A stretch of 64,000 nucleotides of DNA, taken from the IMG/VR virus record IMGVR_UViG_3300028864_000016, positions 154,174-218,173 of that record, one strand, 5' to 3'. The notes beneath the pieces are model-generated. The model had not been told where the DNA came from, ran no database searches, and saw only the letters and a program-made list of their open reading frames with translations. This document shows positions 1,032 through 60,960 of the stretch, in pieces; the stretch's first letter is position 1; every line of letters starts with the position of its first letter. This DNA is from a virus. Made by a program: the position numbers and the translations under genes.

Positions 1032-1049
1032 TACCTTATTTCTATTAAT

Positions 1050-1216
1050 TTATTGAGTTAACATAAAACATACTTTTTAACAGGTTTTCTGACTTCTACA
1101 ACCTAGTGTTTGATCCATTCTTGAAATCTGTTAACTTGATAATTATTAGTATTTTCATTAATTTATTATAATTTATCTTTTTTATGTAAGTGGTAAGTTT
1201 GTTACTTCTTACCACT
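1050..1216 (-). ncRNA. candidate small noncoding RNA of about 170 nt
   Basis: Promoter 1222-1250 would start RNA near 1215, and no open reading frame follows before the next promoter at 1031. The 5' end folds into a perfect 10-bp hairpin (AAGTGGTAAG with CTTACCACTT, 1188-1217). The middle holds one copy of the ACTAG-N-TTGTAG element (about 1089-1121), and the 3' part is an AT hairpin around 1057-1083 with arms GTTAA and TTAAC. A decayed gene cannot be excluded. Confidence 0.45.
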
Positions 1217-16552: not shown

Positions 16553-16579
16553 TACTATTTCTATTAATTTATTTAAATA

Positions 16580-33262: not shown

Positions 33263-33282
33263 CATATTTCTATTAATTTATT

Positions 33283-40466: not shown

Positions 40467-40495
40467 TACTTATTTCTATTAATTTGTTGTTTATT

Positions 40496-43192: not shown

Positions 43193-43282
43193 TATTTTCT
43201 TCCTTTCTATTAATTTATTTCCTTTTAAAATTCACCATTTAATAGAATATTCAACTCTATAAAGCTCCTATTTAAGCCATTC

Positions 43283-43567
43283 TTAACTCTTTAATTTATG
43301 CATTTCTAAATTCAAACTTAGCATATGATTTATCATTATTGAACTATCTATATATTTTACTTTTTCATAAGCTTCCTTAATTTCATTTAAAGTATAACCT
43401 GCAAGTATATTATCCTGCAATAAATCAAAAGAAATTTCATCTTTGTTAATTTTATAATATTCCTTTAATTCCTCACCACCAATCATTTCTAAAATATTTA
43501 ATTTATTATTATATTCTATATCTTTTTTTATAGCGTCACAAAGTTCATAGACATTATCATAAATCAT
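43283..43567 (-). CDS. hypothetical protein, 94 aa
   Basis: Helical (YELCDAIKKDIEYNNKLNIL). ATGA overlap with the terminase-fragment gene upstream, whose GGAGGG serves as ribosome-binding site. Unrecognised. Confidence 0.6.
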   Translation of the reverse strand: MIYDNVYELCDAIKKDIEYNNKLNILEMIGGEELKEYYKINKDEISFDLLQDNILAGYTLNEIKEAYEKVKYIDSSIMINHMLSLNLEMHKLKS

Positions 43568-43854
43568 TTTAAAACCCTCCTTATCCCCATTCTATATAGT
43601 AAAGTTTCTTTCTTACACGCCATCTTTAATAATATTTTTTGATACCACATTAATTTGAAACCTAAATAATCTTCGGCAAATTTTACTGGATTATTATACT
43701 GATTTCTAAACTTTAAAAATTCTTCTTTCCATATCTGAACCCTAATTTCTTCACAAATGTTTTTATATTTTTCTATAGCATAATAATAGGTACTTGATAA
43801 TATATTGTCTATCTTTTTGTAGAAATTCGATAATTCAAAGTATTCTTCATTCAT
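43564..43854 (-). CDS. terminase N-terminal fragment, 96 aa
   Basis: NPVKFAEDYLGFKLMWYQKI followed by LLKMACKKETLLYRMGIRR matches the segment just ahead of Walker A in large terminase subunits, and the protein stops where the P-loop would follow. It may be a relic, or one half of a split terminase whose ATPase half lies at 38517-39524. Confidence 0.5.
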   Translation of the reverse strand: MNEEYFELSNFYKKIDNILSSTYYYAIEKYKNICEEIRVQIWKEEFLKFRNQYNNPVKFAEDYLGFKLMWYQKILLKMACKKETLLYRMGIRRVLK

Positions 43855-43856
43855 AA

Positions 43857-44225
43857 TTATCTCACTCCTTCAATTTTATTTAGCCTGTCTTTAAATTCTC
43901 TTTCTTTGTATTTTCTAATAGTTTCATTTAGCTTATGATTTTCTATTAAAGTCTTATTTAGTTCTTTTTTTATAGTATCCCTAGATTGTTTTACCATCAT
44001 ATGCTCATGTATTCCTATACTTTCAGCATATTCATTTTTTAAATTATGTATTTGATTCTCATATCCTTTGACTTTTGCTTTCAGCATTTGATAACAGAAA
44101 TCATTTTTCTTTATATTTTTATCCTGTTCTTTAATTTTGTCTTGTATTAGTAAGCATAATCTGCTTTCATCTATATTTGATTTTATTCCTAGTATATTTG
44201 CTATTCGTTGTAATTCATTTATCAT
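43857..44225 (-). CDS. coiled-coil protein, 122 aa
   Basis: ATG at 44225 follows GAGGATTG. Long coiled coil from residue 30 (KDKIKEQDKNIKKNDF-like, then YENQIHNLKNEYAESIGIHE) with basic tail. Two bases before 43854. Unrecognised. Confidence 0.6.
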   Translation of the reverse strand: MINELQRIANILGIKSNIDESRLCLLIQDKIKEQDKNIKKNDFCYQMLKAKVKGYENQIHNLKNEYAESIGIHEHMMVKQSRDTIKKELNKTLIENHKLNETIRKYKEREFKDRLNKIEGVR

Positions 44226-44372
44226 TTTAATCAATCCTCTTTCATTTTTATTTATCTTAATTTATTTTTATCTATAGACTAATCTCAAGATACCATTTAA
44301 AATATCTTCAAATTAACCCATACGGGCTTTACCTTTTGTTCTTTATGTATTTTTATCCACCTCCTCTATTAA

Positions 44373-44534
44373 CTAATTAATTTGAGTACTGTTGTTTTGT
44401 AATTCATCCAATCTCTTTAACATATAGTCAATTTCATCTTGACTTAGAATGACATTAGAATAATTTTCTTCATCAATTTTTTCATTATCTAAAAACATAT
44501 ATTTCAATTTATTCTTTATATTATTTATAAACAT
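44373..44534 (-). CDS. small protein, 53 aa
   Basis: ATG at 44534 follows the perfect AAAGGAGGTGATTTA. Reads MFINNIKNKLKYMFLDNEKI and ends LDELQNNSTQIN; amphipathic, acidic C-terminal helix. Part of a run of four tiny genes with strong ribosome-binding sites. Confidence 0.65.
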   Translation of the reverse strand: MFINNIKNKLKYMFLDNEKIDEENYSNVILSQDEIDYMLKRLDELQNNSTQIN

Positions 44535-44567
44535 TAAATCACCTCCTTTAATGGATTTTAATATAAT

Positions 44568-44702
44568 TTATTGTAGATTTAACTTTTGACATAATCCATC
44601 TATCTGAGTAGTTAACATTCTGCCTCTTATAAATGGATTATGAACACCAATAGCTAATACAACAATACTTATTAACTCCTTTCTAAATTCTTGTCTTGTC
44701 AC
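44568..44702 (-). CDS. small protein, 44 aa, GTG start
   Basis: GTG at 44702 follows GGGAGGTGATATGA; an ATG at the same place would stop after seven codons. Reads MTRQEFRKELISIVVLAIGV with a hydrophobic middle, then HNPFIRGRMLTTQID. Unrecognised. Confidence 0.55.
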   Translation of the reverse strand: MTRQEFRKELISIVVLAIGVHNPFIRGRMLTTQIDGLCQKLNLQ

Positions 44703-44730
44703 TCATATCACCTCCCTTCAATGGTATATT

Positions 44731-44823
44731 TTACAAATGAAATATAATAAGGTATCCAACCGGAAACATTATTCCTACTATTAATACATTGTATATTATA
44801 TACTCTTTTAAATCCGCTTTCAT
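44731..44823 (-). CDS. tiny membrane protein, 30 aa
   Basis: ATG at 44823 follows AAGGAGGAATGAATCA. MKADLKEYIIYNVLIVGIMF and a hydrophobic end: a single membrane helix. Could be a type-I-toxin-like or regulatory membrane peptide. Confidence 0.6.
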   Translation of the reverse strand: MKADLKEYIIYNVLIVGIMFPVGYLIIFHL

Positions 44824-44873
44824 TGATTCATTCCTCCTTATGATTATTTTTAATTATATTAATTAATTTATTT

Positions 44874-45011
44874 TTATCTTATGTATGCCTTTTCTTTAAT
44901 GTCATTGATTAATTGTTCTTCCCATTCATCAGATCTACCTGCAACCTTACAAGCTGATAAAACAACTAGTGTGTTTAAAGTTATTATAATTACTGATATT
45001 ATTGTTAACAT
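44874..45011 (-). CDS. tiny membrane protein with lipobox-like motif, 45 aa
   Basis: ATG at 45011 follows AGAGAGGTG. Hydrophobic N-terminus MLTIISVIIITLNTLVVL then SACKVAG, a lipobox-like LSAC, and a charged tail. No Lys/Arg precede the helix, so lipoprotein export is uncertain. Confidence 0.6.
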   Translation of the reverse strand: MLTIISVIIITLNTLVVLSACKVAGRSDEWEEQLINDIKEKAYIR

Positions 45012-45037
45012 GTTTTTCACCTCTCTTTTCTATAAAT

Positions 45038-45421
45038 TTATTTACGCCCTATTAATTCAATATAATTATTGTCTTCGTTTATTTTATAATCTTCATACAT
45101 ATTTGATATTTTATATATTATATGACTCTTTTGTTTATTATCTCTAAATTTCATTTTTATTGTAATTCCTTTTTCTTTTGGTAGTTTGCTTGATGTACAA
45201 TACATACCATTTTCATCTATATTTGCTTTATTTAAATTTTTACAATTTATTTTATCTATAAGATTATCTACTTTTTGAACAACGTTATTATCCACTTTTA
45301 GTATTCTTATTTGATAAGAATTCATCCCTTTTTTAATTTGATTTTTTAATCTTTTATTTTCTGAACTTATTTTTTCTTTTTCAATCTGAATATTATTTAT
45401 TTGGTCAATAAGTGGTTTCAT
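45038..45421 (-). CDS. coiled-coil protein, 127 aa
   Basis: N-terminal coiled coil (QINNIQIEKEKISSENKRLK), then a beta-rich half (GITIKMKFRDNKQKSHIIYK). The start is uncertain: ATG at 45421 or TTG at 45430, both with weak ribosome-binding sites, so coupling to 45452-45652 is likely. Confidence 0.55.
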   Translation of the reverse strand: MKPLIDQINNIQIEKEKISSENKRLKNQIKKGMNSYQIRILKVDNNVVQKVDNLIDKINCKNLNKANIDENGMYCTSSKLPKEKGITIKMKFRDNKQKSHIIYKISNMYEDYKINEDNNYIELIGRK

Positions 45422-45451
45422 TGTAACCAATTCATTTTTAGTTCTTCTTCT

Positions 45452-45652
45452 TTATTGTCTAATTTTTTGCAATCCTTTTGTTAATTCCCAACCCCTATAT
45501 AAATCAAACTTGTCCAAATTCTCTATCTTATGTAGTAAATCTAATTGAGCATCATCTAATGCTTTTAAATCAACCTTTAGTTTATTATAATATTTTTTAG
45601 ATTCTGTTATTTTATTATTGATATTGTCTGCAAAATCAGTAGCCATACACAT
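45452..45652 (-). CDS. hypothetical helical protein, 66 aa
   Basis: ATG follows AAAGGAAATG. Helical (SKKYYNKLKVDLKALDD-like, then HKIENLDKFDLYRGWELTKG). First gene after promoter 45704-45732. Unrecognised. Confidence 0.6.
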   Translation of the reverse strand: MCMATDFADNINNKITESKKYYNKLKVDLKALDDAQLDLLHKIENLDKFDLYRGWELTKGLQKIRQ

Positions 45653-45703
45653 TTTATCATTTCCTTTCTTTTATTATTTGTTTTAATTTATTATTATAAT
45701 AAA

Positions 45704-45732
45704 AGTATAATCCTACCAAATCTAAAAGTCAA
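45704..45732 (-). promoter_or_regulatory. promoter TTGACT-17-TATACT
   Basis: Strong hexamers; the box AACAAATTAACAAAAATAAT lies about 17 bp further upstream, just after the HNH gene's stop. Confidence 0.65.
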
Positions 45733-45774
45733 TAGATATATAATAATTATTTTTGTTAATTTGTTTATTATGTA

Positions 45775-46737
45775 TTAGTCCGTTATTTCTACTATGTAAT
45801 TAACCATTGCTATATACAATGGCTTTGGAATTTGATTTTTATATTGTTCTGCAACTTCTTTTATGTAGGCTTCTTTATGTATCTTATATGCAGTAAAAGC
45901 TTCTTCAACATTACTATAATGACTTCCAATTTCAACCCTTGTCCATTTTCCATTTATAACTTTACTCATTCTAGCATATATAACATTATCATATATACTT
46001 ACACCAATTGGAGTATTTCCTCTTCTTGATACCCCTCTAACAAATAATTTATTAATCTTTTCAGGTACAAAAATACAATTATCAGGACTATATATTTTGT
46101 TCCATTTATGTAATATGTCTTTATCTATACACATCTTTTCATTATCTACTTTATAATAATTTTTATTGAACCATTTTTTAAAGTTCTGAAAATTATGCCA
46201 TTCTTCACAAACTGTACAACCTTTATATGACGTATTTTTTGAATAACTTTCATTATTATAACATCTATCTAATATATGATGCCATCTACCATATTCAACA
46301 TCATTATTTATACCTGTTTGTTTTTCTTGACCAAGATACCCTATACCAAATATCTTTTTGTCATATGGGGAACTTGATCTTCCTTCTTTGAAATCTTTAT
46401 AACTACAAATTTTTATGTATTTATGTACGTTATCATCAAATTCAATCAATACCTTTTGCGAATTTGTATATTCAATTATTGTCATTTTTGTACCATTATT
46501 ATTAAAATTTATTTCACCAACTCTATATGTAAAATCAATTTTATTTTTTTGAATAATTTTTATATTTCTATTTCTTATAAGAGCTTGTTCAAACCAACTA
46601 TAATTTTTGTTATAAGCTATGTGTCCATCTTCAAATTCAACATCTATGTCTCTAGAGTTTCTATACTCTTTTATCCACATTTTTAATCCTTGATTATTAT
46701 ATTTTATTTCTCCTGTTCTATCAATTTTACGACTCAT
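45775..46737 (-). CDS. HNH-like homing endonuclease, 320 aa
   Basis: Contains WHHILDRCYNN, YKGCTVCEEWHNFQNFKKWF, and IDKDILHKWNKIYSPDNCIF then VPEKIN, the layout of a phage nuclease family with C/H-rich core, and a C-terminal AP2-like segment (PIGVSIYDNVIYARMSKVIN). Two Gly-rich N-terminal repeats (TGEIKYNNQGLKMWIKEYRN and VGEINFNNNGTKMTIIEYTN) may bind DNA. Paralogue of 56171-57169; the two end in nearly the same residues (YxVEITD). Confidence 0.75.
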   Translation of the reverse strand: MSRKIDRTGEIKYNNQGLKMWIKEYRNSRDIDVEFEDGHIAYNKNYSWFEQALIRNRNIKIIQKNKIDFTYRVGEINFNNNGTKMTIIEYTNSQKVLIEFDDNVHKYIKICSYKDFKEGRSSSPYDKKIFGIGYLGQEKQTGINNDVEYGRWHHILDRCYNNESYSKNTSYKGCTVCEEWHNFQNFKKWFNKNYYKVDNEKMCIDKDILHKWNKIYSPDNCIFVPEKINKLFVRGVSRRGNTPIGVSIYDNVIYARMSKVINGKWTRVEIGSHYSNVEEAFTAYKIHKEAYIKEVAEQYKNQIPKPLYIAMVNYIVEITD

Positions 46738-46769
46738 TTTCTCTCCTCTGTATTAATTTATTTTTTAAT

Positions 46770-46811
46770 ATTATAAGAAAGTAATCAAGATTTCTCTCAA
46801 TTACTTTCTTA
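46770..46811 (-). terminator. terminator-like hairpin after the peptide gene
   Basis: AAGAAAGTAAT and ATTACTTTCTT form an 11-bp stem with a 14-nt loop, ending 28 nt after the stop of 46839-46946. The tail (ATAATATT) is only partly U-rich. Confidence 0.5.
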
Positions 46812-46838
46812 TGTAGGATAACTATTAATTAATAATTA

Positions 46839-46946
46839 TTATCCACGTCCTGAACCAGTTGTTGCAAACGCTACAACTGTCATTACAACAGTTGATATTG
46901 TTACGATTGCAGTTATAATTAGTGCTTTAAATCTTGCTTTTGTCAT
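46839..46946 (-). CDS. secreted signalling-peptide precursor candidate, 35 aa
   Basis: ATG at 46946 follows a perfect AAAGGAGGTG. The product is MTKARFKALIITAIVTISTV, then VMTVVAFATTGSGRG. A basic start (K3, R5, K7), a hydrophobic core of about 20 residues and an AFA signal-peptidase motif precede the tail TTGSGRG. This is the build of Phr and AimP pro-peptides, whose C-terminal 5-7 residues are the signal; arbitrium peptides commonly end in RGA, here RG. It lies directly downstream of a helical protein in a mazF operon. The ribosome-binding site can be hidden by a 9-bp hairpin in long transcripts. Alternatives: a tiny membrane toxin or other single-helix protein. Confidence 0.55.
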   Translation of the reverse strand: MTKARFKALIITAIVTISTVVMTVVAFATTGSGRG

Positions 46947-46959
46947 TTGTATTTCACCT

Positions 46960-47017
46960 CCTTTTGTAGTTGCTATTAACATAAGATATACTCATGCTAA
47001 ATCGCAAATACAAAAGG
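46960..47017 (-). promoter_or_regulatory. hairpin and internal promoter controlling the peptide gene
   Basis: CCTTTTGTA (47009-47017) and TACAAAAGG (46960-46968) pair perfectly; the second arm includes part of the AGGAGG ribosome-binding site. A possible promoter TTGTAT-17-TATATC (46985-47013) starts RNA after the first arm, so its transcript would lack the blocking arm. Confidence 0.4.
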
Positions 47018-47042
47018 ATTTTTAAAAATGTAATTTATGATT

Positions 47043-47681
47043 TTATATAATTTGTTTGAGTTGATTTTTAATTAATAACAATACGTCATTATAAAGAGAA
47101 ATATCTACTTTTTCTATATCCTTAATAAAACTCTCTAATGTGTCATTATATTCAGTGGTATTGTTATGTAATAGTATGTCTTCTACCACCAAGAAGACAA
47201 CCTTAAAATTTCCTTTTAATATATTAATATTAAATTCTGATATTAATTTTTCCATATATTTATCTTTATGTGCATAATCATAATCTTTGTAAGTATCATA
47301 ACAAAATTGGTGTATTTTAATTAATTCTTCATTAGTTATTTCATCTTTATAGCATACAGCATAATTATTTAATGCTTTGCAGTATCTCTCTTTATTAATT
47401 TGATTATTTGTATAATTAGGGTGAGTATCTAGCATATCTTTTAGTGCTTTCGCATAAGGTTTTGCTTCACTCATATCTGATATATTTTTTTCTTTTAATA
47501 TTTGCATTATAATCGTGGTCAAGTTGTGTAATATTAATCTTCTGCATTCTATACTTTTAAATTTATTACCAATTTGAAAAAACATTTTTCTTAGTATTTC
47601 TTTTGCCTTATCCTTTGAAACAAAATCCCATATATAATATAACTTCTCCATTTCTTCTAATAACATTTCCTCTTCACTCAT
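47043..47681 (-). CDS. all-helical protein in mazF operon, 212 aa
   Basis: ATG at 47681 follows GGGGTG, 18 nt after the mazF stop. The sequence is almost entirely helical with repeating Tyr/Ala/Leu positions: CKALNNYAVCYKDEITNEEL, IHQFCYDTYKDYDYAHKDKY. It recalls TPR helices of peptide receptors (Rap, AimR), but lacks a helix-turn-helix and is about half their length. Possible roles are antitoxin for the MazF homologue, receptor for the peptide encoded next, or both. No family was recognised with confidence. Confidence 0.6.
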   Translation of the reverse strand: MSEEEMLLEEMEKLYYIWDFVSKDKAKEILRKMFFQIGNKFKSIECRRLILHNLTTIIMQILKEKNISDMSEAKPYAKALKDMLDTHPNYTNNQINKERYCKALNNYAVCYKDEITNEELIKIHQFCYDTYKDYDYAHKDKYMEKLISEFNINILKGNFKVVFLVVEDILLHNNTTEYNDTLESFIKDIEKVDISLYNDVLLLIKNQLKQII

Positions 47682-47699
47682 TTTTAACACCCCATTCTA

Positions 47700-48446
47700 T
47701 TATCCTATAGATATTTTTCTCTCCCTTGTATATTCCACATAGTAATCTTTATAATTTATTCCATTATCTTTGCATATTCTTTCTAAATGGTCTAATAACA
47801 TTGACCTCTCAGATAATAAGTGATTTAAATTATTTGTTTTTGACCTTCCAAGTACTTTTTCATAGCTGTATATAAATTGTAATGTTTCATTTATATCATC
47901 TTGTACATATTTAGGTAATTTTTCTAATGGACTTTTTTCTTGTAATATACCCCTTTGAATATTTCTAGCCTTTTCAACTTTCTTTAATACCAACTCATCT
48001 ACAGTTCCAATGTATGTAAGCAGTTGATATCTTACATCTATTGGCGTATCTTGTTCTATCAGTATTACCGATTGCTCCTTTAATCCAAATCCTTCTACAG
48101 TAACGTGTACTGGAATATTACTTGCTTTTGCCATATTTGAAGTTAATGGATACACATTTATTATATTTGAAAACCTATTGTTTATATCATTAGAATCTAC
48201 TAATGCCGGGCGTACCCCACTTTGTAGAGATCCTCTCCTTTGTCCAAAATCTACATACCAAAGTTGACCTTTCTTTACTTGTTTCTTTTCTTCTTTATTA
48301 TTATAATTTGTTTTATCTATAGTAATTTTTTTATTAATATTATTACTATATACAATTTCTTTTGCTTCAATTGATTTGCTATCTTTAATTTCCTCTTTAT
48401 CCATTTTTGTCTTTATTGCCATTAGTTGCTCTTGAAAATTATTCAT
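47700..48446 (-). CDS. mazF: MazF/PemK-type endoribonuclease toxin, 248 aa
   Basis: Residues about 58-165 form a complete PemK domain: VKKGQLWYVDFGQRRGSLQS, GVRPALVDSND, VYPLTSNMAKASNIPVHV, GLKEQSVILIEQDTP. The conserved catalytic-type Arg (GVRP) and Thr/Ser (LTS) are present. It has a 57-residue N-terminal and an 80-residue C-terminal extension not found in the 110-aa chromosomal MazF, perhaps built-in control or partner-binding parts. No MazE-like antitoxin lies upstream; the 212-aa protein downstream is the only obvious partner. ATG at 48446 follows GGAAGGTGG. Transcribed from up to three promoters (48545-48764). Confidence 0.85.
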   Translation of the reverse strand: MNNFQEQLMAIKTKMDKEEIKDSKSIEAKEIVYSNNINKKITIDKTNYNNKEEKKQVKKGQLWYVDFGQRRGSLQSGVRPALVDSNDINNRFSNIINVYPLTSNMAKASNIPVHVTVEGFGLKEQSVILIEQDTPIDVRYQLLTYIGTVDELVLKKVEKARNIQRGILQEKSPLEKLPKYVQDDINETLQFIYSYEKVLGRSKTNNLNHLLSERSMLLDHLERICKDNGINYKDYYVEYTRERKISIG

Positions 48447-48544
48447 TACAACCACCTTCCTTTAATTAATCCTTCTTAAATTCCAATTAAAATTACTTTT
48501 TTATCACTTATTATTTCCATTAATTTGTTTTGACCTATGTACTA

Positions 48545-48573
48545 AGTTTAACTCTAATTCCATATGTTGTCAA
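48545..48573 (-). promoter_or_regulatory. mazF proximal promoter TTGACA-17-TAAACT
   Basis: Perfect -35. The box AACAAATTAATTAAAAAGAA lies about 45 bp upstream, with a long AT-rich spacer. Confidence 0.65.
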
Positions 48574-48647
48574 TACTTTTTTGTAAATTATTTATAATTT
48601 ATTTTCACTATTTCTTTTTAATTAATTTGTTTCACTTCTATACTCTT

Positions 48648-48676
48648 ATATTACTACTATCTTCCAAACATGTCAA
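48648..48676 (-). promoter_or_regulatory. mazF middle promoter TTGACA-17-TAATAT
   Basis: Perfect -35. The box AATAAATTAAAAGAAATAAA lies about 20 bp upstream. Confidence 0.65.
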
Positions 48677-48735
48677 TACTTATTTTAAATATTATTTTAT
48701 TTCTTTTAATTTATTGATTCCCTGTCCATAAATAC

Positions 48736-48764
48736 ATATTATACTATATAGAAATCATTGTCAA
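48736..48764 (-). promoter_or_regulatory. mazF distal promoter TTGACA-17-TAATAT
   Basis: Perfect -35; an overlapping TATAAT gives 15-bp spacing as an alternative. The box AATAAATTAATAAAATTAAG is upstream, just after the terminator at 48823-48855. Confidence 0.65.
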
Positions 48765-48822
48765 CACTTTTTATTAAATTTATCTTAATTTTATTAATTT
48801 ATTCTGACATAATATAATCATA

Positions 48823-48855
48823 TACAAAAGAAAAGGCTAGAATCAACTTCTAACC
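48823..48855 (-). terminator. terminator after the 385-aa recombinase-like gene
   Basis: GGTTAGAA and TTCTAGCC pair over 8 bp (one G-U), followed by TTTTCTTTT. The stem begins at the stop codon. It separates the repressor-like gene from the mazF promoters. Confidence 0.7.
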
Positions 48856-50012
48856 TAACTTTCAACTTTGTTTAAATCAGCACTTACTTCTGATTTTACT
48901 TCTATTTCTTTACTATCAAACTTTTCCTCACCATTTATAAATTCTTCAAAATTTATTTGCTTTCTAATTTTATCTACTACCTCTTTAGAGTTTTTTTCCT
49001 CTAAAGATACTACTGATTCACCACTTTTTCTTTTGTCTATAACCATATCTTTTGTTAATGCTTCATAATAATCTTTTAATGTATAAATAGCACTAACATT
49101 TACTTCATCTCTAAAGTTCATATATACCCATTGTATGTCATCTGTAGTTATTTTTCTTGTTTCTCTAATTTCTAATAATAAATCAATATATCTAGATTTT
49201 ATTAAATCTCCAAATGCTATTCTATCTATTTTGGCGCTTTTACAACCTGTATAAACTTTACTATTAATTGTACTGTAATTTTCAATCAAACTTTCATCTC
49301 TTGCACTATTACTTTTCTTTAATATATAATTGTAATCAGTTGATTCGTCTGTATCATTACTCAGTTTATATTTATCAATCCACTCTAAAAATCTATCATC
49401 AACATCTATATATCTAATTAATTTACCATTATCAATTATTCTCACTCTTTTATTCTCATAATCAATATCATTACATCTTAAACTTCTTGCATGTATCATC
49501 TGTTTACCTGTGATTCCATATCTAGCCAGTAGCAATGGCATTGCATTAGACAAAGATGATGCCGTTTCAATTTTTACTAATAGGTTATAGAATTTTCCTA
49601 ATCCCCAAAGATTATTAATTAAAACTTTAGACATATCTTTTATAATTTCTCTTCTATTTAATACGTCAATTACATTACCACTTATATCACCACGACCAAC
49701 TCCCCAACGTTTATAAATGTTAATAAAATGTACTATATTATTCTTGCTTGGTTGAGAAAGTCTAAATCTACTTGCAAGAATTTCATCTACTTCAGTTTGG
49801 TTAAAAAACATTACATCTTTTCCTAATACTAATTCATTTGGATGAATGTGATTATTATATAAAGACCACATATTTTTTAAAGTATTTTCGTTATCATATA
49901 CTTCATTTAAAAATGTCAGCTTTGCTTTTTGTATACTATCATAACTCTTTATAAGATCATTCTTTTCTTTTATTGTTTTATATTCTTGCCCTATAAAATA
50001 TTTATTCTTCAT
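48855..50012 (-). CDS. tyrosine-recombinase-fold regulator, catalytically dead, 385 aa
   Basis: Residues about 55-145 look like a core-binding domain and 150-340 like a recombinase catalytic domain: AMPLLLARYGITGKQMIHAR, SLRCNDIDYENKRVRIIDNG, IAFGDLIKSRYIDLLLEIRE. The positions that should hold the catalytic R (GLR-x-SEL), H-x2-R, H and Y are replaced, so it should not recombine DNA. The SPbeta master repressor MrpR (YopR) has exactly such a recombinase fold without activity and binds repeated sites at phage promoters. This protein is the best candidate for the window's master regulator. It overlaps the 466-aa gene by 11 nt. Confidence 0.7.
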   Translation of the reverse strand: MKNKYFIGQEYKTIKEKNDLIKSYDSIQKAKLTFLNEVYDNENTLKNMWSLYNNHIHPNELVLGKDVMFFNQTEVDEILASRFRLSQPSKNNIVHFINIYKRWGVGRGDISGNVIDVLNRREIIKDMSKVLINNLWGLGKFYNLLVKIETASSLSNAMPLLLARYGITGKQMIHARSLRCNDIDYENKRVRIIDNGKLIRYIDVDDRFLEWIDKYKLSNDTDESTDYNYILKKSNSARDESLIENYSTINSKVYTGCKSAKIDRIAFGDLIKSRYIDLLLEIRETRKITTDDIQWVYMNFRDEVNVSAIYTLKDYYEALTKDMVIDKRKSGESVVSLEEKNSKEVVDKIRKQINFEEFINGEEKFDSKEIEVKSEVSADLNKVES

Positions 50013-51402
50013 TCTCTATCACCTCTTTAGCAATATGTTTAAAGTAATTATATATTTTTCTTACACTAAAACTTTTCCAAGTTAATTTTAAAGGTTCTAA
50101 ATCTTCATTTGTCAAAGACATTAGTTTATTTCCTATCTTCATTAAATATTTTTCATAATTATTCTCAAATTGTCTCAGTTCATTTGCTATTGCTATATAT
50201 CCAATAAATATATTAACATCGACTAAATGAGTTTCTTTTTCTAAATTTTCCAAAGTTTCGTGTTCCATTAATAAATATTCAAAAAGCTCATCTATTATAT
50301 TAGACATACTTTCTGCAATCATTTTTCTTTGTAATTTAGAATTCACAGGAATATCAATAGCATGTTTTTCTATTGTTTCACTTAATATAGCTGAATAAGT
50401 TATACTTGGTATAGCTATATATTCATCATATGTCTTAACTACTTTTTCATTTAATATTTGTGAAGATTTAATCAATAATTCTACAAAATCATTATAATCA
50501 CTATTTTCCAGTGTTTCCAACCATTGCCTATCAGTATCACTTCTTTTGAAAATTTGATTTACTACTCTTTGAGCTCCTTTTAAATCTCTTATTGTTATTT
50601 TTATTGGGAAACCTCTATTTTCCAATAACTTTCCTTTTCTTAATACATTTTCATATGCTTTTATACCTGCCATTGTTCTATGCCAACCATCAAGTGGATT
50701 TATTACTGTATAATTGATTGATTGTCTGTCATAGTTTGGAACTATTTCAACATTATATATATTTTCAAATCTTTGTTCCATTGCTACTTGTGGTACATTT
50801 TTTTGACTTTTTAAAAGGACATTATATATTAACAGGTCTTCTTCATATACTCCATTTTCAATATCTTTAGCTATCTCATTTACTGCTTTATTATTAAGAC
50901 TATATGTTTTCACAATTGTTCCCTTTGTCCCTATTTCTTTATATACTGGTGCTCTTTGAGTATCATAATTGTAATTATAAATAGTATTATTATAACAATC
51001 ATATAATGTTTGTAATGGTACATACCCTAATAAATTATAATCATCAATCTTTATCATATTTTTAATAAAAAAAGAATCAACTACTTTTAATTCATTCATT
51101 TTATTATCATATGCTACAAGTAAACTATTTTTAAACCATTTGTTAGGATCAAGTATTTCCCAATCTAATGCAACCTTAGCTCCTTCAATAAATGCGACTT
51201 GTTCCAATTCTTTAAAGTCATACCATTGTTTATCTCCACCAAATAATGCACTTATTAGTCTAACAGAAAATCCCTTTTCTTGAAATTTTTTAGTTAAAGT
51301 ATCTGATAATTTTTTATTTTTCCCTTCTTCATTTATTATTTTATCAATTATTTTAAATTGTTCTTCTTCTGGAATCAAATCCTTAATTGTTTTCATTTCC
51401 AT
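50002..51402 (-). CDS. DGWHR-domain protein, 466 aa
   Basis: The block YTVINPLDGWHRTMAGIKAY, followed by ITIRDLKGAQRVVNQIFKRS, resembles DGQHR/ParB-like domains (DndB and relatives), where this loop binds nucleotide or sulfur-DNA signals. The rest is helical. In SPbeta, a protein of similar size (YopQ, about 460 aa as I recall) lies beside yopR; the paired arrangement here is similar, but homology is not established. First gene after promoter 51467-51495, coupled to the recombinase-like regulator. Confidence 0.6.
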   Translation of the reverse strand: MEMKTIKDLIPEEEQFKIIDKIINEEGKNKKLSDTLTKKFQEKGFSVRLISALFGGDKQWYDFKELEQVAFIEGAKVALDWEILDPNKWFKNSLLVAYDNKMNELKVVDSFFIKNMIKIDDYNLLGYVPLQTLYDCYNNTIYNYNYDTQRAPVYKEIGTKGTIVKTYSLNNKAVNEIAKDIENGVYEEDLLIYNVLLKSQKNVPQVAMEQRFENIYNVEIVPNYDRQSINYTVINPLDGWHRTMAGIKAYENVLRKGKLLENRGFPIKITIRDLKGAQRVVNQIFKRSDTDRQWLETLENSDYNDFVELLIKSSQILNEKVVKTYDEYIAIPSITYSAILSETIEKHAIDIPVNSKLQRKMIAESMSNIIDELFEYLLMEHETLENLEKETHLVDVNIFIGYIAIANELRQFENNYEKYLMKIGNKLMSLTNEDLEPLKLTWKSFSVRKIYNYFKHIAKEVIENEE

Positions 51403-51466
51403 AACATTTCACCTCTATTTAAATTTTTGCATTCTATATTATTAATTATTTACATACTATAAATAT

Positions 51467-51495
51467 ATTATACAATAAATTAATAATTAATGCAA
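51467..51495 (-). promoter_or_regulatory. promoter TTGCAT-17-TATAAT of the regulator operon
   Basis: Consensus -10 with 17-bp spacing, overlapping the T-tract of terminator 51495-51524. No AAYAAATTAA box precedes it, unlike the mazF promoters, so this operon may be regulated differently. Confidence 0.65.
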
Positions 51496-51524
51496 CAAAA
51501 AAGCGAAGATATTTTTATCTTCAC
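51495..51524 (-). terminator. strong terminator after 51548-51805
   Basis: GTGAAGATA and TATCTTCGC form a 9-bp stem (one U-G) with AAAA loop, followed by TTTTTT. Confidence 0.75.
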
Positions 51525-51547
51525 TTAATTTATTTTCCTTGATTAAA

Positions 51548-51805
51548 TTATACTCTTTCCAACTCATGAATACAACCATTAATAAATAAAATTTTAACTG
51601 AATTATTATTTTCTATGTAATAAATCTCTTCAATAATGTCTAAATTTAATTTATTCATAATTTCTTCAATTTCTAATTCATTTGTAATATTTTTTTCATC
51701 AATTATTCGAACACCTAGTTCACTTCCGCACAGAAAATATTCAAACTCATCTATGCTTATTATTTGTCCCAAATCTTGTTTAACTTTTTCTATTCTCATT
51801 TCCAT
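51548..51805 (-). CDS. hypothetical acidic protein, 85 aa
   Basis: ATG follows AAGGGGACG. Acidic alpha/beta (VKQDLGQIISIDEFEYFLCG). Monocistronic between the divergent regulatory region and a strong terminator, so it may be an immediate-early or lysogenic gene. Unrecognised. Confidence 0.65.
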   Translation of the reverse strand: MEMRIEKVKQDLGQIISIDEFEYFLCGSELGVRIIDEKNITNELEIEEIMNKLNLDIIEEIYYIENNNSVKILFINGCIHELERV

Positions 51806-51842
51806 TATTATCGTCCCCTTTATATTTTTATTTTATAAATAA

Positions 51843-52092
51843 ATTAATGCATTTAACTTGTCTACATTTTTATTTTATAACAAATTAATATAAATAGCAA
51901 TACATTATTTATTTAAATTTCCATATTTTTATTGAGTATTAATTTTAGCTAATCAAATATGATTTTACAATATTAATACCAAAATCGGATAACTTTGATA
52001 CTAATTTCGGACTATTGTTGTAAAACACATTGTTAATAATAACCAAAGAATATATAATTAAAGCTTGTATGAAAGGAGTTGACGTTTGATAC
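51843..52092. promoter_or_regulatory. divergent control region upstream of first XRE gene
   Basis: Contains plus-strand promoter TTGTTA-17-TATAAT (52030-52058). Two operator-like direct repeats, TACCAAAATCGGA (51977-51989) and TACTAATTTCGGA (51999-52011), lie 22 bp apart. A plus-oriented copy of the box AACAAATTAATATAAATA lies near 51879. Minus-strand transcription of 51548-51805 probably starts from TAGACA-17-TATTTA near 51840-51870. Confidence 0.5.
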
Positions 52093-52302
52093 ATGGTTAA
52101 AATGAAATTACATATACTATTGGATAAGTATAGAATCAGTCAACGTGAATTCGCTCAACAAACCCATATTAGATATGCAACAGTTAATAGTTATGCGAAT
52201 CAAACTTACAAACATATAGTCAATAAGCATATAGATATTATTTGTACATATTTTGATTGTAACATTGAAGATTTAATTGAATATACAAAAGATAATCATT
52301 AA
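52093..52302 (+). CDS. XRE/Cro-type repressor, 69 aa
   Basis: A compact helix-turn-helix: LHILLDKYRISQREFAQQTH followed by IRYATVNSYANQTY as recognition helix and a short dimer tail (DLIEYTKDNH). Resembles Cro-like proteins of SPbeta phages in size. Transcribed on the plus strand, opposite to almost all other genes, from 52030-52058, and ends in its own terminator. Probably the genetic-switch antagonist to the minus-strand regulators. Confidence 0.75.
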   Translation: MVKMKLHILLDKYRISQREFAQQTHIRYATVNSYANQTYKHIVNKHIDIICTYFDCNIEDLIEYTKDNH

Positions 52303-52337
52303 AGATTGGATATAAAATTAATATCTAGTCTTTTTTA
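52301..52337 (+). terminator. terminator after first XRE gene
   Basis: AGATTGGATAT and ATATCTAGTCT pair over 11 bp (with G-U pairs), followed by TTTTTT on the plus strand. Confidence 0.7.
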
Positions 52338-52626
52338 TTTGAATATTTTTATGTTAATGTTTGTTCTATTGTTATTATATTACAGAACATATGTTTGGTC
52401 AAGTTGTTATTATTATTGAAATTTTACTATTTTAGTTGTTAAATTTATATCAATGCCCTTATGTTCATTATATACCCTTATGTTCAAAATACATATTACT
52501 CTGAGTAATATCGTTCTTCTATTTTTTTATTATTGGTTATAATTACCTCTTGATTCGACTAATTATGACATGATATAATATTTTTACCTGTACAGGGAAA
52601 ATATATTTGTCGAAGGGGTGGCAAAT
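52338..52626 (+). promoter_or_regulatory. operator region upstream of second XRE gene
   Basis: No ORF. Two perfect copies of CCCTTATGTTCA (52456-52467 and 52475-52486), a nearby GAACAT half-site, a promoter TTGATT-18-TATAAT with extended TG (52550-52579), and the palindrome CCTGTACAGG (52588-52597) at the expected transcription start. Confidence 0.55.
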
Positions 52627-52938
52627 ATGATTTGCAATTTATATACTTTATATGTAAAACGATTTCGTGAACTAAGAAGAATGACTCAAAGTGAACTCGC
52701 TTTCAAAATTGGTAAATCACAAGGATTCATATCACAAATTGAAATGGATAATAATATCAGAACCAAGTCAATATTGCTTGTAGACCTAGTTCTAATAGCA
52801 CAAGCACTAAATGTATGCCCTAATGATCTTATTAGATATCGTTGTCGTCAATGTCATCGTTTTGATATTTGTACTAGACACAAATATTTAGAAAAAGATG
52901 ATGAACATTTTAAAGAACATTTAGGCTATTATACTTAA
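52627..52938 (+). CDS. XRE repressor with C-terminal Cys/His motif, 103 aa
   Basis: ATG at 52627 follows AAGGGGTGG. Helix-turn-helix: RRMTQSELAFKIGKSQGFIS then QIEMDNNIRTKSI. The C-terminal RCRQCHRFDICTRHKYLEKD adds a C-x2-C-x5-C-x2-H pattern that may bind zinc or act as a redox or ligand sensor; such a tail is unusual for a phage XRE protein. Confidence 0.75.
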   Translation: MICNLYTLYVKRFRELRRMTQSELAFKIGKSQGFISQIEMDNNIRTKSILLVDLVLIAQALNVCPNDLIRYRCRQCHRFDICTRHKYLEKDDEHFKEHLGYYT

Positions 52939-52946
52939 TTTAATTA

Positions 52947-53000
52947 TAAAAGCAAGTATAACTAATTAAATTTGATATAGTTATACTTGCTTTTATTTTT
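52947..53000. terminator. bidirectional terminator
   Basis: AAAAGCAAGTATAACTA and TAGTTATACTTGCTTTT form a 17-bp stem with A/T tails on both sides. It ends the plus-strand XRE transcript and the minus-strand operon from 53053. Confidence 0.8.
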
Positions 53001-53052
53001 ATATATTATTATGTTTAGACTAATTTTCAAAATTATCTCTATATCTCATCAA

Positions 53053-53235
53053 TTATTCATCAACTCTTTCTAAATTATTAGCTTCAGCAGTTGTTATTTT
53101 CATCCTATCTACTCCATATTTAACTTGTACTAGCTTAAAGGAAGGTATATGACCTATAATTTCTCCCTTTATTTCTTTATTAAATAAATCAGTTCCAGCT
53201 ACGCTAATGCCCTTTAATGCGTCTTTATAATCCAT
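53053..53235 (-). CDS. small beta-rich protein, 60 aa
   Basis: ATG follows GGGAGGTAG. Reads MDYKDALKGISVAGTDLFNK and ends in a barrel-like pattern (SFKLVQVKYGVDRMKITTAE). Last gene of the operon ending at the bidirectional terminator. Unrecognised. Confidence 0.65.
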   Translation of the reverse strand: MDYKDALKGISVAGTDLFNKEIKGEIIGHIPSFKLVQVKYGVDRMKITTAEANNLERVDE

Positions 53236-53278
53236 AAACTACCTCCCCATATTATTTTTATATAATTATAACATTAAA

Positions 53279-53545
53279 CTAACATACTTCATATATCATA
53301 TTATTTACTGATACATTAACATTATTAATGTTCTCAATGGTTGTTATTATGCCTTTGTAGACTATAGAAAACATAGAATCACATATAAAACTTAAATCTA
53401 TTGATTTACCTAATGGTATTTCTAAATTATTTTCAATTATATCTTTTATCACTTCTTTAATCTCTCGTTCTGGAATATATCTTTCTCCTTCTTTTTGTAT
53501 TATTATATTTTTATCATTTATTGTTAATGGTATTATTTTATTCAT
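53279..53545 (-). CDS. hypothetical protein, 88 aa
   Basis: ATG follows GAAGGATAT. Alpha/beta (PLTINDKNIIIQKEGERYIP). Unrecognised. Confidence 0.65.
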   Translation of the reverse strand: MNKIIPLTINDKNIIIQKEGERYIPEREIKEVIKDIIENNLEIPLGKSIDLSFICDSMFSIVYKGIITTIENINNVNVSVNNMIYEVC

Positions 53546-53650
53546 ATTTATATCCTTCTTTCACATAATCCTTATTGTTTTAATTTATTATGTAGTTTAT
53601 TAATGTTAAAAAAGAAGAATTAGTGAGTTCAAATGAAAGTAACATTTTAT

Positions 53651-53830
53651 CTAGACACATTTTTTAAGCCATTCTATTTCTTTTTCAATAGCTTCTTTCC
53701 TTGAATATATTTCACCTTCAAAATCTCCGTAATATGTTATGTTTGCACCTGCATATCCTTGAAATGATTGTATTCTATCTTCTGCCATTTCTTCTATTGT
53801 AAATTGTTTTATTCTTTCATAATTATTCAT
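53651..53830 (-). CDS. small phage protein, 59 aa
   Basis: ATG at 53830 follows GAAAGGAAG. NNYERIKQFTIEEMAEDRIQ and the end EAIEKEIEWLKKCV follow a pattern frequent in clostridial phage small proteins (x-YE-x-I-K-x-x-(S/T)-IEEMA ... EWL). Function unknown. Confidence 0.65.
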   Translation of the reverse strand: MNNYERIKQFTIEEMAEDRIQSFQGYAGANITYYGDFEGEIYSRKEAIEKEIEWLKKCV

Positions 53831-53894
53831 TTAATTTATACTTCCTTTCTTAAACTAATTTTATATAATAATTTACTGTTTCAGGTATTTCACC

Positions 53895-54470
53895 TTATTT
53901 TAATTCATAGCAATTATTCTTATATAATTCTTCCCTACCATAACCATAAACGCTCCCAAACGGCAATTTTAATTCTAAGTCTATATCTAATGACTTTAAT
54001 AAAAAGAATACTGTATGTTCTCTATTATCTTTGTTTATGTCAATTTCTATTATTTTAATTAAGTTTGGTATTTTAGAAAGTAATTTTTGATATAGTTTAA
54101 CTATTAAATACTCATGTTCAATTTTGTAATCTGATAACATTGATTCATAAGCATGTATCATTTCGTGTAACAAAACACGATTGTTTATACGAGAAGGTAC
54201 TATATTAATGACTTTCCAAAATCCAGTGCATTCACCTGTAAAGTCATCATTTTTATCTACTACGTTAAACTTCCACTCATAAAAATCTACTAATGTTTCA
54301 GGCATAAACTTTCTTGCATCTTCATTAATATTCATTAGAATTACATATTCAATATCTTGAAAATATTTCTTTTGAAATTGAAGTGCTTTAATAAATAAGT
54401 TATATTCTGATTTAGTCATACCCTGTTCAGTTATTGGATTATGATATACAATTTTAGATTTATTAGTCAT
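53895..54470 (-). CDS. zinc metallopeptidase-like protein, 191 aa
   Basis: VLLHEMIHAYESMLSDYK contains HExxH, the zinc and catalytic motif of zincin proteases, in an SprT-like context (preceded by a beta strand). No signal peptide, so it acts in the cytoplasm, perhaps cleaving a host or phage regulator. ATG at 54470 follows GAGGAGATG. It lies close to an XRE gene, an arrangement seen with ImmA/ImmR-type pairs, though the sequence is not ImmA-like. Confidence 0.7.
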   Translation of the reverse strand: MTNKSKIVYHNPITEQGMTKSEYNLFIKALQFQKKYFQDIEYVILMNINEDARKFMPETLVDFYEWKFNVVDKNDDFTGECTGFWKVINIVPSRINNRVLLHEMIHAYESMLSDYKIEHEYLIVKLYQKLLSKIPNLIKIIEIDINKDNREHTVFFLLKSLDIDLELKLPFGSVYGYGREELYKNNCYELK

Positions 54471-54504
54471 TCTACATCTCCTCACATACTCTAAAACTAA
54501 GATT

Positions 54505-54678
54505 TTATGAATATTTATCCAAATGCTTGTTAATTATTTTTCTTGCTTCCTCATCATCATTTAATTTTCCCCACAGTTCAGTATCAATCATTGTAAAGTC
54601 CACTTTTTCATTCGGAACATCACATATACAATATCCTGTTTGCTTAAGTTGTTCAAGCCATATAAAAAATTTATTCAT
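54505..54678 (-). CDS. hypothetical protein, 57 aa
   Basis: ATG at 54678 follows AAAGGGATG. Reads MNKFFIWLEQLKQTGYCICD, ends in a charged helix. Unrecognised. Confidence 0.6.
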   Translation of the reverse strand: MNKFFIWLEQLKQTGYCICDVPNEKVDFTMIDTELWGKLNDDEEARKIINKHLDKYS

Positions 54679-56170: not shown

Positions 56171-57169
56171 TTAGTCAGTTATTTCAACTTTATATTTGTA
56201 CATTGCATCATAAAGTTTATGTGGGATCTTATTTTTGTAGTAATCTGCTACTTCCTTTATATAATTCTCTTTATATCGTTTGTAAGCACTAAATGCTTCT
56301 TCAATTGTTGGATAGACTCCAATATGAATATATTCTCCTATAAGCACATTTTGACATCTTGCTCTATATTTATTAACTAAATTTTTAGTTAATACTACTC
56401 CAATTGGTAAATCTCCCCTACTACCATCCGATTTGCAAAATAAAGTATTTATTCTTTCTGGAACAAAACAACAATCGTCAGGGTTGTATATTCTATTTCC
56501 TTTGTGTAATATATCTTTATCTAAATGCATTTTTTCGTTATCTACCTCATAATAATTATCATCATACCATTTAGCAAATATTTGAAAGTTATGCCATTGC
56601 TCATCACAAGATACATTTTTATATGTTGGACGTTTTTCTTCTAATTTACTATCATAGCATCTTAACAACATTGAACTCCAATGTATATACTGTTTTGTAT
56701 TTTTATTTTCTTTGTCACCTATGTCTATGGACTTATATTTTCCTTCTCCAAGAAATCCCACGCCTTGTGTAGTTTTATCGTATGGACTAATAATAGTTCC
56801 TCTTAAAAATTCTCCATATTGTCTATTTTTTAATATAGCTCCATCTTGGAATTGTATATCTATATCGTTTGACTTTCTATAATTTATTATTGTCATCTTT
56901 GAACCTAATGTATTATAATTATTTTCGCCTACTCTATGTGTTTTAATTGATTTTAAATGGCTTTTTCTTTTCTCAATACATTTTTTATTTGTGCAACCTC
57001 CACCTCGCTGTAAACTGCTAATACTAGCGTTCCATTCGTGATTACATCTTTTATCTATTGCTAATATTTTTATATTATAACTAATATATTCACCTAGTAT
57101 TTCAATGTTTGGATTTAAAATTTTTATCTCTACTTTGAATTGTTCTGTTGTTTTCATTACTTTCCCCAT
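56171..57169 (-). CDS. HNH-like homing endonuclease, 332 aa
   Basis: N-terminal zinc part (CNHEWNASISSLQRGGGCTN), then WSSMLLRCYDS, YKNVSCDEQWHNFQIFAKWY and LDKDILHKGNRIYNPDDCCF, the nuclease core, and an AP2-like tail (IGVYPTIEEAFSAYKRYKEN). Paralogue of 45775-46737. Located directly before the integrase. ATG follows GGAGATATTTA. Confidence 0.75.
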   Translation of the reverse strand: MGKVMKTTEQFKVEIKILNPNIEILGEYISYNIKILAIDKRCNHEWNASISSLQRGGGCTNKKCIEKRKSHLKSIKTHRVGENNYNTLGSKMTIINYRKSNDIDIQFQDGAILKNRQYGEFLRGTIISPYDKTTQGVGFLGEGKYKSIDIGDKENKNTKQYIHWSSMLLRCYDSKLEEKRPTYKNVSCDEQWHNFQIFAKWYDDNYYEVDNEKMHLDKDILHKGNRIYNPDDCCFVPERINTLFCKSDGSRGDLPIGVVLTKNLVNKYRARCQNVLIGEYIHIGVYPTIEEAFSAYKRYKENYIKEVADYYKNKIPHKLYDAMYKYKVEITD

Positions 57170-57238: not shown

Positions 57239-58183
57239 TTATAAATTGTTTAATGGATTCTTACCAGCCATGTCCCTTAATTCTTCTTCTTCAACTCTTA
57301 GATATTTTTCTGTTGTTTTAATTGAACTATGCCCCAAAGCACGTTGTATCTGTCTTATATTTGCACCAGCATTATGAGTTAATGTAGCATATGTTCCTCT
57401 TAATTTATGTGGTGTATATTTTTCGTCTGTTAACTCCGCTATATTTAGATATTTTTTTACCATATTTCTTATGCTATTTGTACTTATGTTTGTTTTATAA
57501 GCATGTGATAAAAATAAATATTGTTTTACTGTATCAGATATTCCTTCTTCATTCCTATTGTTTAAATAATCCTTAATAGATTGTTTACAAACATCATCAA
57601 GATATACAAACCTTTCTTTTGATCCTTTTCCCCATATTTTAATCTTATCATCTTTCATATCTTTTATTTTAATATTTGCAAGTTCAGATATTCTTAAACC
57701 ACAATGTAAAAATATATTTAGAATACATTTATCTCTGTAATAATTTACGTCATCCTTATCTAATGATTGTGTTAATTTTACAGCCTGCTTTAAACTTAAT
57801 GTTATTGGTTCAGTTTTAGCTTGCTTAGGACTTTCTAATTCATAAGCAGGATTAAAAGTTATTAACCTTATTTTATTTTGTAAATACTCAAAATAAGCTT
57901 TTAAAGTTGCAACTTTTCTACATCTTGTACTAGCACCATTTTTACACTCTTCTATTAAATAATCCATAAAATTATGTAGATGTTTTAATTTAATAGTTTT
58001 TATATATTTATCATTAATAGCGTGTCTGTCTTTTCCTCTGTTACTCTTAAGGAATCTTACAAATATTTTTAAATCATTCTCATATCCTAATACTGTCTTT
58101 TCTGAAAGACCTTTTATATTTCTACAATAATTTAAAAAACTTATTACACTTTCAGGTAATTGTATTTCATTTTTAGTTTCCAT
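57239..58183 (-). CDS. tyrosine recombinase, catalytically complete, 314 aa
   Basis: XerD-like. N-terminal SAM-like core-binding domain (KGLSEKTVLGYENDLKIFVR) and catalytic domain with all six signature positions: Arg in CGLRISELANI, Lys in GKGSKERFVYL, H-x2-R in HKLRGTYATL, His in RALGHSSIKTT and Tyr in EKYLRVEEE. It could integrate the element, resolve dimers of a circular prophage, or move a cassette. Single-gene transcript from promoter 58234-58262. No attachment site could be seen. Confidence 0.9.
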   Translation of the reverse strand: METKNEIQLPESVISFLNYCRNIKGLSEKTVLGYENDLKIFVRFLKSNRGKDRHAINDKYIKTIKLKHLHNFMDYLIEECKNGASTRCRKVATLKAYFEYLQNKIRLITFNPAYELESPKQAKTEPITLSLKQAVKLTQSLDKDDVNYYRDKCILNIFLHCGLRISELANIKIKDMKDDKIKIWGKGSKERFVYLDDVCKQSIKDYLNNRNEEGISDTVKQYLFLSHAYKTNISTNSIRNMVKKYLNIAELTDEKYTPHKLRGTYATLTHNAGANIRQIQRALGHSSIKTTEKYLRVEEEELRDMAGKNPLNNL

Positions 58184-60905: not shown

Positions 60906-60960
60906 TAAATAATAAATTAATAGAAATATTTTTATTAAAATACCGAATTTATTTAGAATT

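What the first reader, a model, noticed from the sequence alone, without database searches (positions are those of the whole stretch)
48855..50012. Catalytically dead recombinase as likely master repressor
The protein keeps the tyrosine-recombinase layout but lacks the catalytic Arg, His and Tyr. MrpR of SPbeta is a repressor with this fold that binds repeated operators. Position between the DGWHR gene and mazF, and the many similar promoters in the window, fit such a role.
Basis: partly seen in the sequence, partly recalled or inferred. Interest (0 to 1): 0.75.

Follow-up and report, generated by a model that had tools for sequence, protein, structure and literature searches.

The report
MrpR-type dead-recombinase phage repressor cassette
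A large AT-rich phage carries a former DNA-cutting enzyme that has lost its active site and belongs to the family of the SPbeta phage's master switch (MrpR); it sits in an exchangeable three-gene cassette beside a toxin-like MazF gene, so it is most likely the switch that keeps this phage dormant.

Summary
The protein at 48855-50012 (-), called R here, is a distant but secure member of the MrpR/SroF family. It has the Pfam MrpR core-binding domain above cut-off. Profile-profile comparison with the SPbeta side gives 99% over 287 columns. Its AlphaFold model finds phi3T SroF-DNA, SroF-Sar and MrpR/YopR as best PDB hits, ahead of all active recombinases. Both catalytic Arg and the His positions are lost; loss of the Tyr cannot be decided. 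R overlaps a YopQ-like DGWHR gene (Q), the same pair as SPbeta yopQ-yopR. Five related phage contigs share the order small ORF-Q-R-tandem promoters-mazF fusion. Against one of them the window is 99% identical on one side and 95% on the other, while small ORF-Q-R is cleanly replaced: an exchanged regulatory cassette.

Repressor function and operators remain inferred. The phage carries about 150 oriented copies of AAYAAATTAATAGAAATA before genes and promoters. The method that finds this word also recovers SPbeta's MrpR operator, but the word does not track R among relatives, so R as its reader is only possible.

'Master repressor' and the named promoters as targets are unproven.

The parts
48855..50012 (-). 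R: MrpR/SroF-family protein, 385 aa, catalytically degenerate tyrosine-recombinase fold
50002..51402 (-). Q: YopQ-like DGWHR protein, 466 aa; overlaps the R start by 11 bp (probable translational coupling)
   Evidence: phrog_5732 E 5.7e-27; blastp to SPbeta YopQ 4.6e-5 and E3 Q 1.9e-7
51548..51805 (-). N: small ORF, 85 aa, first gene of the exchanged cassette; a small ORF stands at the same place in the relatives
   Evidence: AlphaFold mean pLDDT 72.9, only one of five models that good
48804..51778 (.). exchanged segment (N-Q-R) without DNA similarity to G010, flanked by blocks 99.4% and 94.7% identical
48834..48856 (-). intrinsic terminator directly after R
48736..48764 (-). tandem promoter P1 (TTGACA-17-TAATAT)
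48648..48676 (-). tandem promoter P2 (TTGACA-17-TAATAT)
48545..48573 (-). tandem promoter P3 (TTGACA-17-TAAACT)
48786..48803 (-). copy of dispersed element upstream of P1
48698..48715 (-). copy of dispersed element upstream of P2
48512..48529 (-). copy of dispersed element upstream of the mazF gene
51872..51900 (-). candidate promoter of N-Q-R (TTGCTA-17-TAAAAT) with an element copy (51879-51896, + orientation) in its spacer
47700..48455 (-). MazF/PemK-domain protein with N- and C-terminal extensions, 251 aa
   Evidence: PF02452 E 2.4e-18; PDB EndoA/MazF matches
47043..47690 (-). 215-aa partner gene of unknown family downstream of mazF, conserved in position
52093..52302 (+). divergent small HTH regulator (XRE type), 69 aa
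52618..52938 (+). divergent HTH_3 regulator, 106 aa
   Evidence: PF01381 E 8.7e-8
57239..58183 (-). separate tyrosine integrase with Phage_integrase domain (YopP-like position)
   Evidence: PF00589 E 1.9e-32; blastp to E3 P 1.7e-8

Best explanation
R is an MrpR/SroF-type transcriptional repressor: a tyrosine recombinase that has lost its catalytic residues and kept DNA binding. It is made from an N-Q-R operon and most likely holds the phage's lytic promoters off in the lysogen. Targets probably include its own operon and the tandem promoters P1-P3 of the adjacent mazF operon. N and Q, which are exchanged together with R, would be partners that set when R lets go. Shown here: family, fold, loss of the active site (Arg, His), operon structure, conserved neighbourhood, exchange of N-Q-R as a unit. 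Inferred: DNA binding, repression, lysogeny control, target sites, roles of N and Q.
For: MrpR core-binding domain above the Pfam cut-off and in 9/9 family members. hhalign 99.0%, E 5.5e-18, 287 columns, against SPbeta/E3/PJN02 R. PDB profile hits without the Geobacillus rows: 9rd5/9rgl E 2.5e-6, MrpR/YopR about 0.004. Foldseek best hits are SroF-DNA, SroF-Sar and YopR/MrpR. Catalytic Arg, His and Arg replaced. Q-R pair as in SPbeta and E3. Separate integrase in the window, so R need not recombine. N-Q-R swapped as a block. In SPbeta and phi3T this gene is the experimentally shown repressor (PMC8612738, PMC10516654, PMC10769878).
Against: Sequence identity to MrpR itself is about 20%, and the C-terminal domain does not reach the Pfam MrpR_C_cat model. 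The AlphaFold model is moderate (pLDDT 72.8, pTM 0.64) and TM-scores are low (0.38-0.52), as expected for two mobile domains. No lysogen or host was found. The mazF promoter region was not exchanged together with R, so R-specific operators there would have to be shared by R proteins only 35% identical. No aimR, yopN or yosL homologue was found.
Confidence: 0.72

Rival explanations
1. R is a DNA-binding member of the family with a local or accessory job (for example control of the mazF operon or of phage-plasmid maintenance), and the real master repressor is one of the divergent HTH proteins (52093-52302, 52618-52938).
For: HTH regulators lie next to the cassette in the relatives. The R-mazF gap carries 2-3 conserved tandem promoters in all six phages. 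Second R-like genes exist in G010 and G015, so not every copy can be the master.
Against: In SPbeta HTH genes also lie in or beside the same operon (yopO, yopS), yet the YopR homologue is the repressor in SPbeta and phi3T (PMC8612738, PMC10769878).
Confidence: 0.2
2. R is still an active recombinase (integrase or resolvase) with an unusual active site.
For: Tyrosines occur near the expected nucleophile position (Y310, Y315, Y316). PHROG calls its family 'integrase'.
Against: Both catalytic Arg and the His positions are replaced (with Table 3 of PMC10516654). No tyrosine is invariant in relatives. Another integrase with a strong catalytic-domain match is in the window. MrpR showed no recombination activity (PMC10516654).
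Confidence: 0.03
3. On the separate question of the operator: the dispersed AAYAAATTAATAGAAATA element is not read by R but is a general expression element of this phage lineage (upstream promoter element, site of another phage factor, or leader element). This can be true together with the best explanation.
For: G021, whose R is the closest relative (58-59%), has a different word, AAATAAAATATAAATA. G015, with R only 27% identical, has the same word as the window. Half of the copies lie about 22-36 nt before start codons with no promoter. Contigs without a detectable R also carry it.
Against: The same de novo search recovers SPBRE, the proven MrpR site, as the top SPbeta word, and finds an oriented repeat in every R-bearing phage tested, while three R-less control stretches gave nothing comparable. 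R-less contigs may be fragments.
Confidence: 0.6

Closest known systems
MrpR (YopR/SroF), master repressor of Bacillus phage SPbeta
   Same: Core-binding domain family, overall fold, lost catalytic Arg and His, gene directly after a YopQ-type gene, phage with repeated intergenic elements
   Different: About 20% identity; C-terminal domain below the Pfam MrpR_C_cat threshold; about 60 residues longer; no aimR, yopN or yosL homologue detected; mazF-type gene immediately downstream; HNH gene and several small genes between the integrase and Q
phi3T SroF (phi3T_97; PDB 9rd5 with DNA, 9rgl with antirepressor Sar)
   Same: Best structural and best profile match of all PDB entries
   Different: 17-18% identity; operator and antirepressor of the window phage unknown
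Geobacillus virus E3 gp148-gp147-gp146 (YopP-YopQ-YopR type)
   Same: Integrase, Q and R in the same order; R matches by BLAST (E 1e-11)
   Different: No mazF gene annotated beside it; R 25% identical; its repeat lies inside the promoter spacer at several sites
Mycobacteriophage L5 gp71 and its dispersed asymmetric 'stoperator' sites (known from general knowledge, not tested here)
   Same: Many oriented copies of a short asymmetric site in short intergenic gaps
   Different: Unrelated repressor; several times more copies here; binding not shown

Membership tests
MrpR/SroF repressor family | N-terminal MrpR core-binding domain (PF22822) | tested here: met
   33.5 bits vs cut-off 27; 9/9 members
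MrpR/SroF repressor family | C-terminal MrpR catalytic-like domain (PF22823) | tested here: inconclusive
   Not reported for R at E 0.01, only for 3 of 9 members; but the profile alignment to MrpR runs through this domain and Foldseek aligns R with MrpR/YopR over 311-342 columns
MrpR/SroF repressor family | Tyrosine-recombinase fold, nearest to MrpR/SroF rather than to active enzymes | tested here: met
   Ranks 1-7 are SroF/YopR/MrpR, XerA follows
MrpR/SroF repressor family | Catalytic Arg I, His, Arg II lost | tested here: met
   I167/T168, G268, I271/K272
MrpR/SroF repressor family | Gene order YopQ-YopR | tested here: met
   Q 50002-51402 overlaps R; conserved in five relatives
MrpR/SroF repressor family | Binds a repeated operator at phage promoters and represses them | not testable with these tools
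   Candidate repeats found but binding needs an experiment
MrpR/SroF repressor family | Required for lysogeny | not testable with these tools
   No host or lysogen identified
Arbitrium phages (SPbeta group) | aimR and aimP beside the repressor operon | tested here: not met
   No homologue of SPbeta AimR among contig ORFs of at least 60 aa
Active tyrosine recombinases | R-H-R-Y catalytic residues | tested here: not met
   Both Arg and His replaced

The most novel reading that the evidence does not exclude
In this very AT-rich phage lineage a recombinase-derived repressor silences the genome through more than a hundred short, oriented, asymmetric sites placed before genes and 19-22 bp upstream of -35 boxes, a stoperator-like global silencing system. 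It is carried in an exchangeable N-Q-R cassette wired to the phage's own MazF, in place of the host MazEF that SPbeta and phi3T exploit.
Probability: 0.22. Interest if true: 0.8.

Novelty: new variant of a known kind. Interest (0 to 1): 0.52.

Why it matters
It extends the MrpR family, known functionally from Bacillus phages, to a divergent group of very AT-rich phages of about 200 kb. It supplies a clean natural swap of the cassette between near-identical phages, which makes the specificity of these repressors directly testable. It also places a phage-encoded MazF directly behind the repressor, while in SPbeta and phi3T the host MazEF takes part in the same decision. The de novo repeat search that recovers SPBRE gives concrete operator candidates for uncharacterised relatives such as Bacillus phage PJN02.

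Tried and rejected
(1) R as an active recombinase: catalytic Arg and His positions replaced. (2) R as the proven reader of the AAYAAATTAATAGAAATA element: attractive, but the element does not track R identity (G021 R 58-59% with a different word, G015 R 27% with the same word), so left open. (3) The element as a recombination boundary that explains the cassette swap: block ends lie near an element in 7 of 40 cases, against 39% of random intergenic positions; rejected. (4) Inverted-repeat operators in the spacers of P1-P3: the right half coincides with an extended -10, the left half is not constant (read); not pursued. (5) Host identification through bacterial genome contigs: two scans, no relative; the plasmid collection gave only distant Bacillus hits. 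(6) AimR, YonO-type RNA polymerase, YosL and YopN in the phage: none found. (7) A direct BLASTP of R to SPbeta MrpR is not significant (E 0.21); the relationship needs profiles or the E3/PJN02 intermediates. (8) Single-sequence search of the PDB misses MrpR.

Full report
WHAT IS THERE. The ORF at 48855-50012 (-) codes for 385 aa, called R here. The window is 64 kb of a 218,173-base virus record, 25% G+C. R overlaps by 11 bp the end of Q (50002-51402), the 'DGWHR' gene. Upstream of Q is a small ORF, N (51548-51805). Downstream of R come an intrinsic terminator (48834-48856), a 400-bp gap with three promoters, a MazF-domain protein (47700-48455) and a 215-aa partner (47043-47690).

FAMILY. One-to-one BLAST of R to SPbeta MrpR is not significant (E 0.21). 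R does match the Pfam MrpR core-binding model above its cut-off and PHROG 5830 over 29-322. It also matches R of Geobacillus phage E3 (E 1e-11) and of Bacillus phage PJN02 (E 6e-11), which in turn match MrpR at 6e-48 and 5e-18. A profile of seven window-type proteins aligns with a profile of the SPbeta/E3/PJN02 proteins at 99.0% probability over 287 columns. The same profile finds phi3T SroF (9rd5/9rgl) in the PDB at 2.5e-6 and MrpR/YopR at about 0.004. An AlphaFold model (pLDDT 72.8, pTM 0.64) compared with the PDB gives SroF bound to DNA, SroF with its antirepressor, YopR and MrpR as the best seven chains, then XerA and other recombinases. TM-scores are only 0.38-0.52, as expected for two domains joined by a flexible linker and a moderate model.

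ACTIVE SITE. MrpR's residues at the seven catalytic positions are published (PMC10516654 Table 3). In the profile alignment R has I167/T168 for Arg I, H174 for the acid, G196/K197 (register uncertain) for the lysine, G268 for His and I271/K272 for Arg II. The nucleophile cannot be settled: one alignment puts Y315 opposite MrpR Y304, another A318. No tyrosine in this helix is invariant in relatives. An ordinary integrase with a strong Phage_integrase match lies at 57239-58183.

NEIGHBOURHOOD. SPbeta has yopP (integrase)-yopQ-yopR and E3 the same trio. Q of the window is homologous to YopQ (phrog_5732 5.7e-27; BLASTP 4.6e-5). Relatives of R were found in IMG/VR contigs: G001 (R 53%), G021 (58-59%), G007 (37%), G010 (35%), G015 (27%). 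All five keep small ORF-Q-R followed by a mazF-type gene, and divergent HTH genes were seen upstream. The gap between R and mazF holds two or three promoters AAAAGTRTTGACA-17-(-10) spaced about 90-110 bp in all six phages. In the window this 13-mer (at most 1 mismatch) occurs 6 times against 0.93 expected.

CASSETTE EXCHANGE. Window 43222-48803 is 99.4% and 51779-54507 is 94.7% identical to G010, while 48804-51778, which is N-Q-R, shows no DNA similarity there, and R and Q are 35% and 31% identical as proteins. The MazF proteins are identical. N-Q-R is therefore exchanged as a unit. Its flanking promoters were not exchanged, so either both R proteins read the same sites or the difference lies in what controls R (N, Q, an antirepressor). 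This last step is inference.

REPEATED ELEMENT. The phage carries about 150 intergenic copies of AAYAAATTAA(TAGAAATA), oriented with the downstream gene (132 to 19). About half lie within 50 nt of a start codon, mostly 22-36 nt before it. Others lie 19-22 bp upstream of TTGAC (9 against 0.54 expected). In the window, matches with up to 3 mismatches number 51 against 10.4 expected. Density is 0.99 per kb of noncoding DNA at 73.7-116.7 kb, a stretch that includes the tape-measure match, and 3.2 and 6.6 elsewhere. A de novo oriented word count recovers SPBRE as the top SPbeta word, which serves as a positive control because MrpR binds SPBRE in vivo (PMC10516654). The same count gives a different oriented word in each other R-bearing phage: PJN02 GATACAAATAATGATATAAT (between -35 and -10, like SPBRE), E3 AAAATATAATAA (in a promoter spacer at several sites), G011 AAGATATAAAAT (just upstream of -35), G021 AAATAAAATATA, G022 AACAATTTAAAA. 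Stretches of AR9, Twort and SPO1 gave nothing comparable apart from poly-A in SPO1, though their intergenic sets are small. Contigs without a detectable R also carry the word, though these may be fragments. I therefore keep element and repressor as two findings that may or may not be linked.

MECHANISM. Best supported: R is a dead recombinase that works as a repressor from an N-Q-R operon, like MrpR/SroF, whose loss makes SPbeta and phi3T lytic (PMC8612738, PMC10769878). Shown: homology, fold, loss of catalytic Arg and His, operon, conservation, exchange. Inferred: binding, targets, lysogeny. In phi3T and SPbeta the host MazEF takes part in the decision (PMC10769878). Here a phage-borne MazF domain sits directly behind R with its own promoter array; that R controls it is a reasonable guess, not a result. 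No AimR, YopN, YosL or YonO homologue was found.

VERDICT. A real and well-identified member of a recently defined repressor family, in a new phage group and a new arrangement.

Noticed in passing
whole record G000, e.g. window 1037-1054, 16556-16573, 33265-33282, 40471-40488, 60911-60928: About 150 oriented intergenic copies of AAYAAATTAATAGAAATA, before start codons or 19-22 bp upstream of -35 boxes; the factor that reads them is unknown.
   Followed up: partly
L075 (Bacillus phage PJN02, NC_071050 80001-130000), ten sites such as 46732, 25043, 10608: Promoter repeat TTGAC-N-AGTGATACAAATAATGATATAAT, with the repeat between -35 and -10 as in SPbeta's SPBRE; a predicted operator for this phage's MrpR homologue.
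   Followed up: partly
window 47700-48455: MazF/PemK domain with about 60 extra residues before and 80 after; its loop EQDTPIDVRYQL departs from the EndoA loop EQIRTIDKQRL that the relatives keep, so RNA or antitoxin recognition may differ. No MazE was seen.
   Followed up: partly
window 45775-46737 and 56171-57169: Two HNH endonucleases of the same family (phrog_953), probably homing, placed near the regulatory module.
   Followed up: no
L058 1135-2340 (G010) and L057 1414-2706 (G015): Second R-like genes away from the N-Q-R cassette.
   Followed up: no
G011 (IMGVR_UViG_3300002001_000009) 161076-164969: A Q-R pair of an even more distant branch (R 20% identical) with its own repeated word upstream of -35 boxes.
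   Followed up: partly
window 51872-51900: The candidate N-Q-R promoter has an element copy, in reverse orientation, inside its -35/-10 spacer in the window; the matching sequence in G001 has it too and G021 has its own word there.
   Followed up: partly
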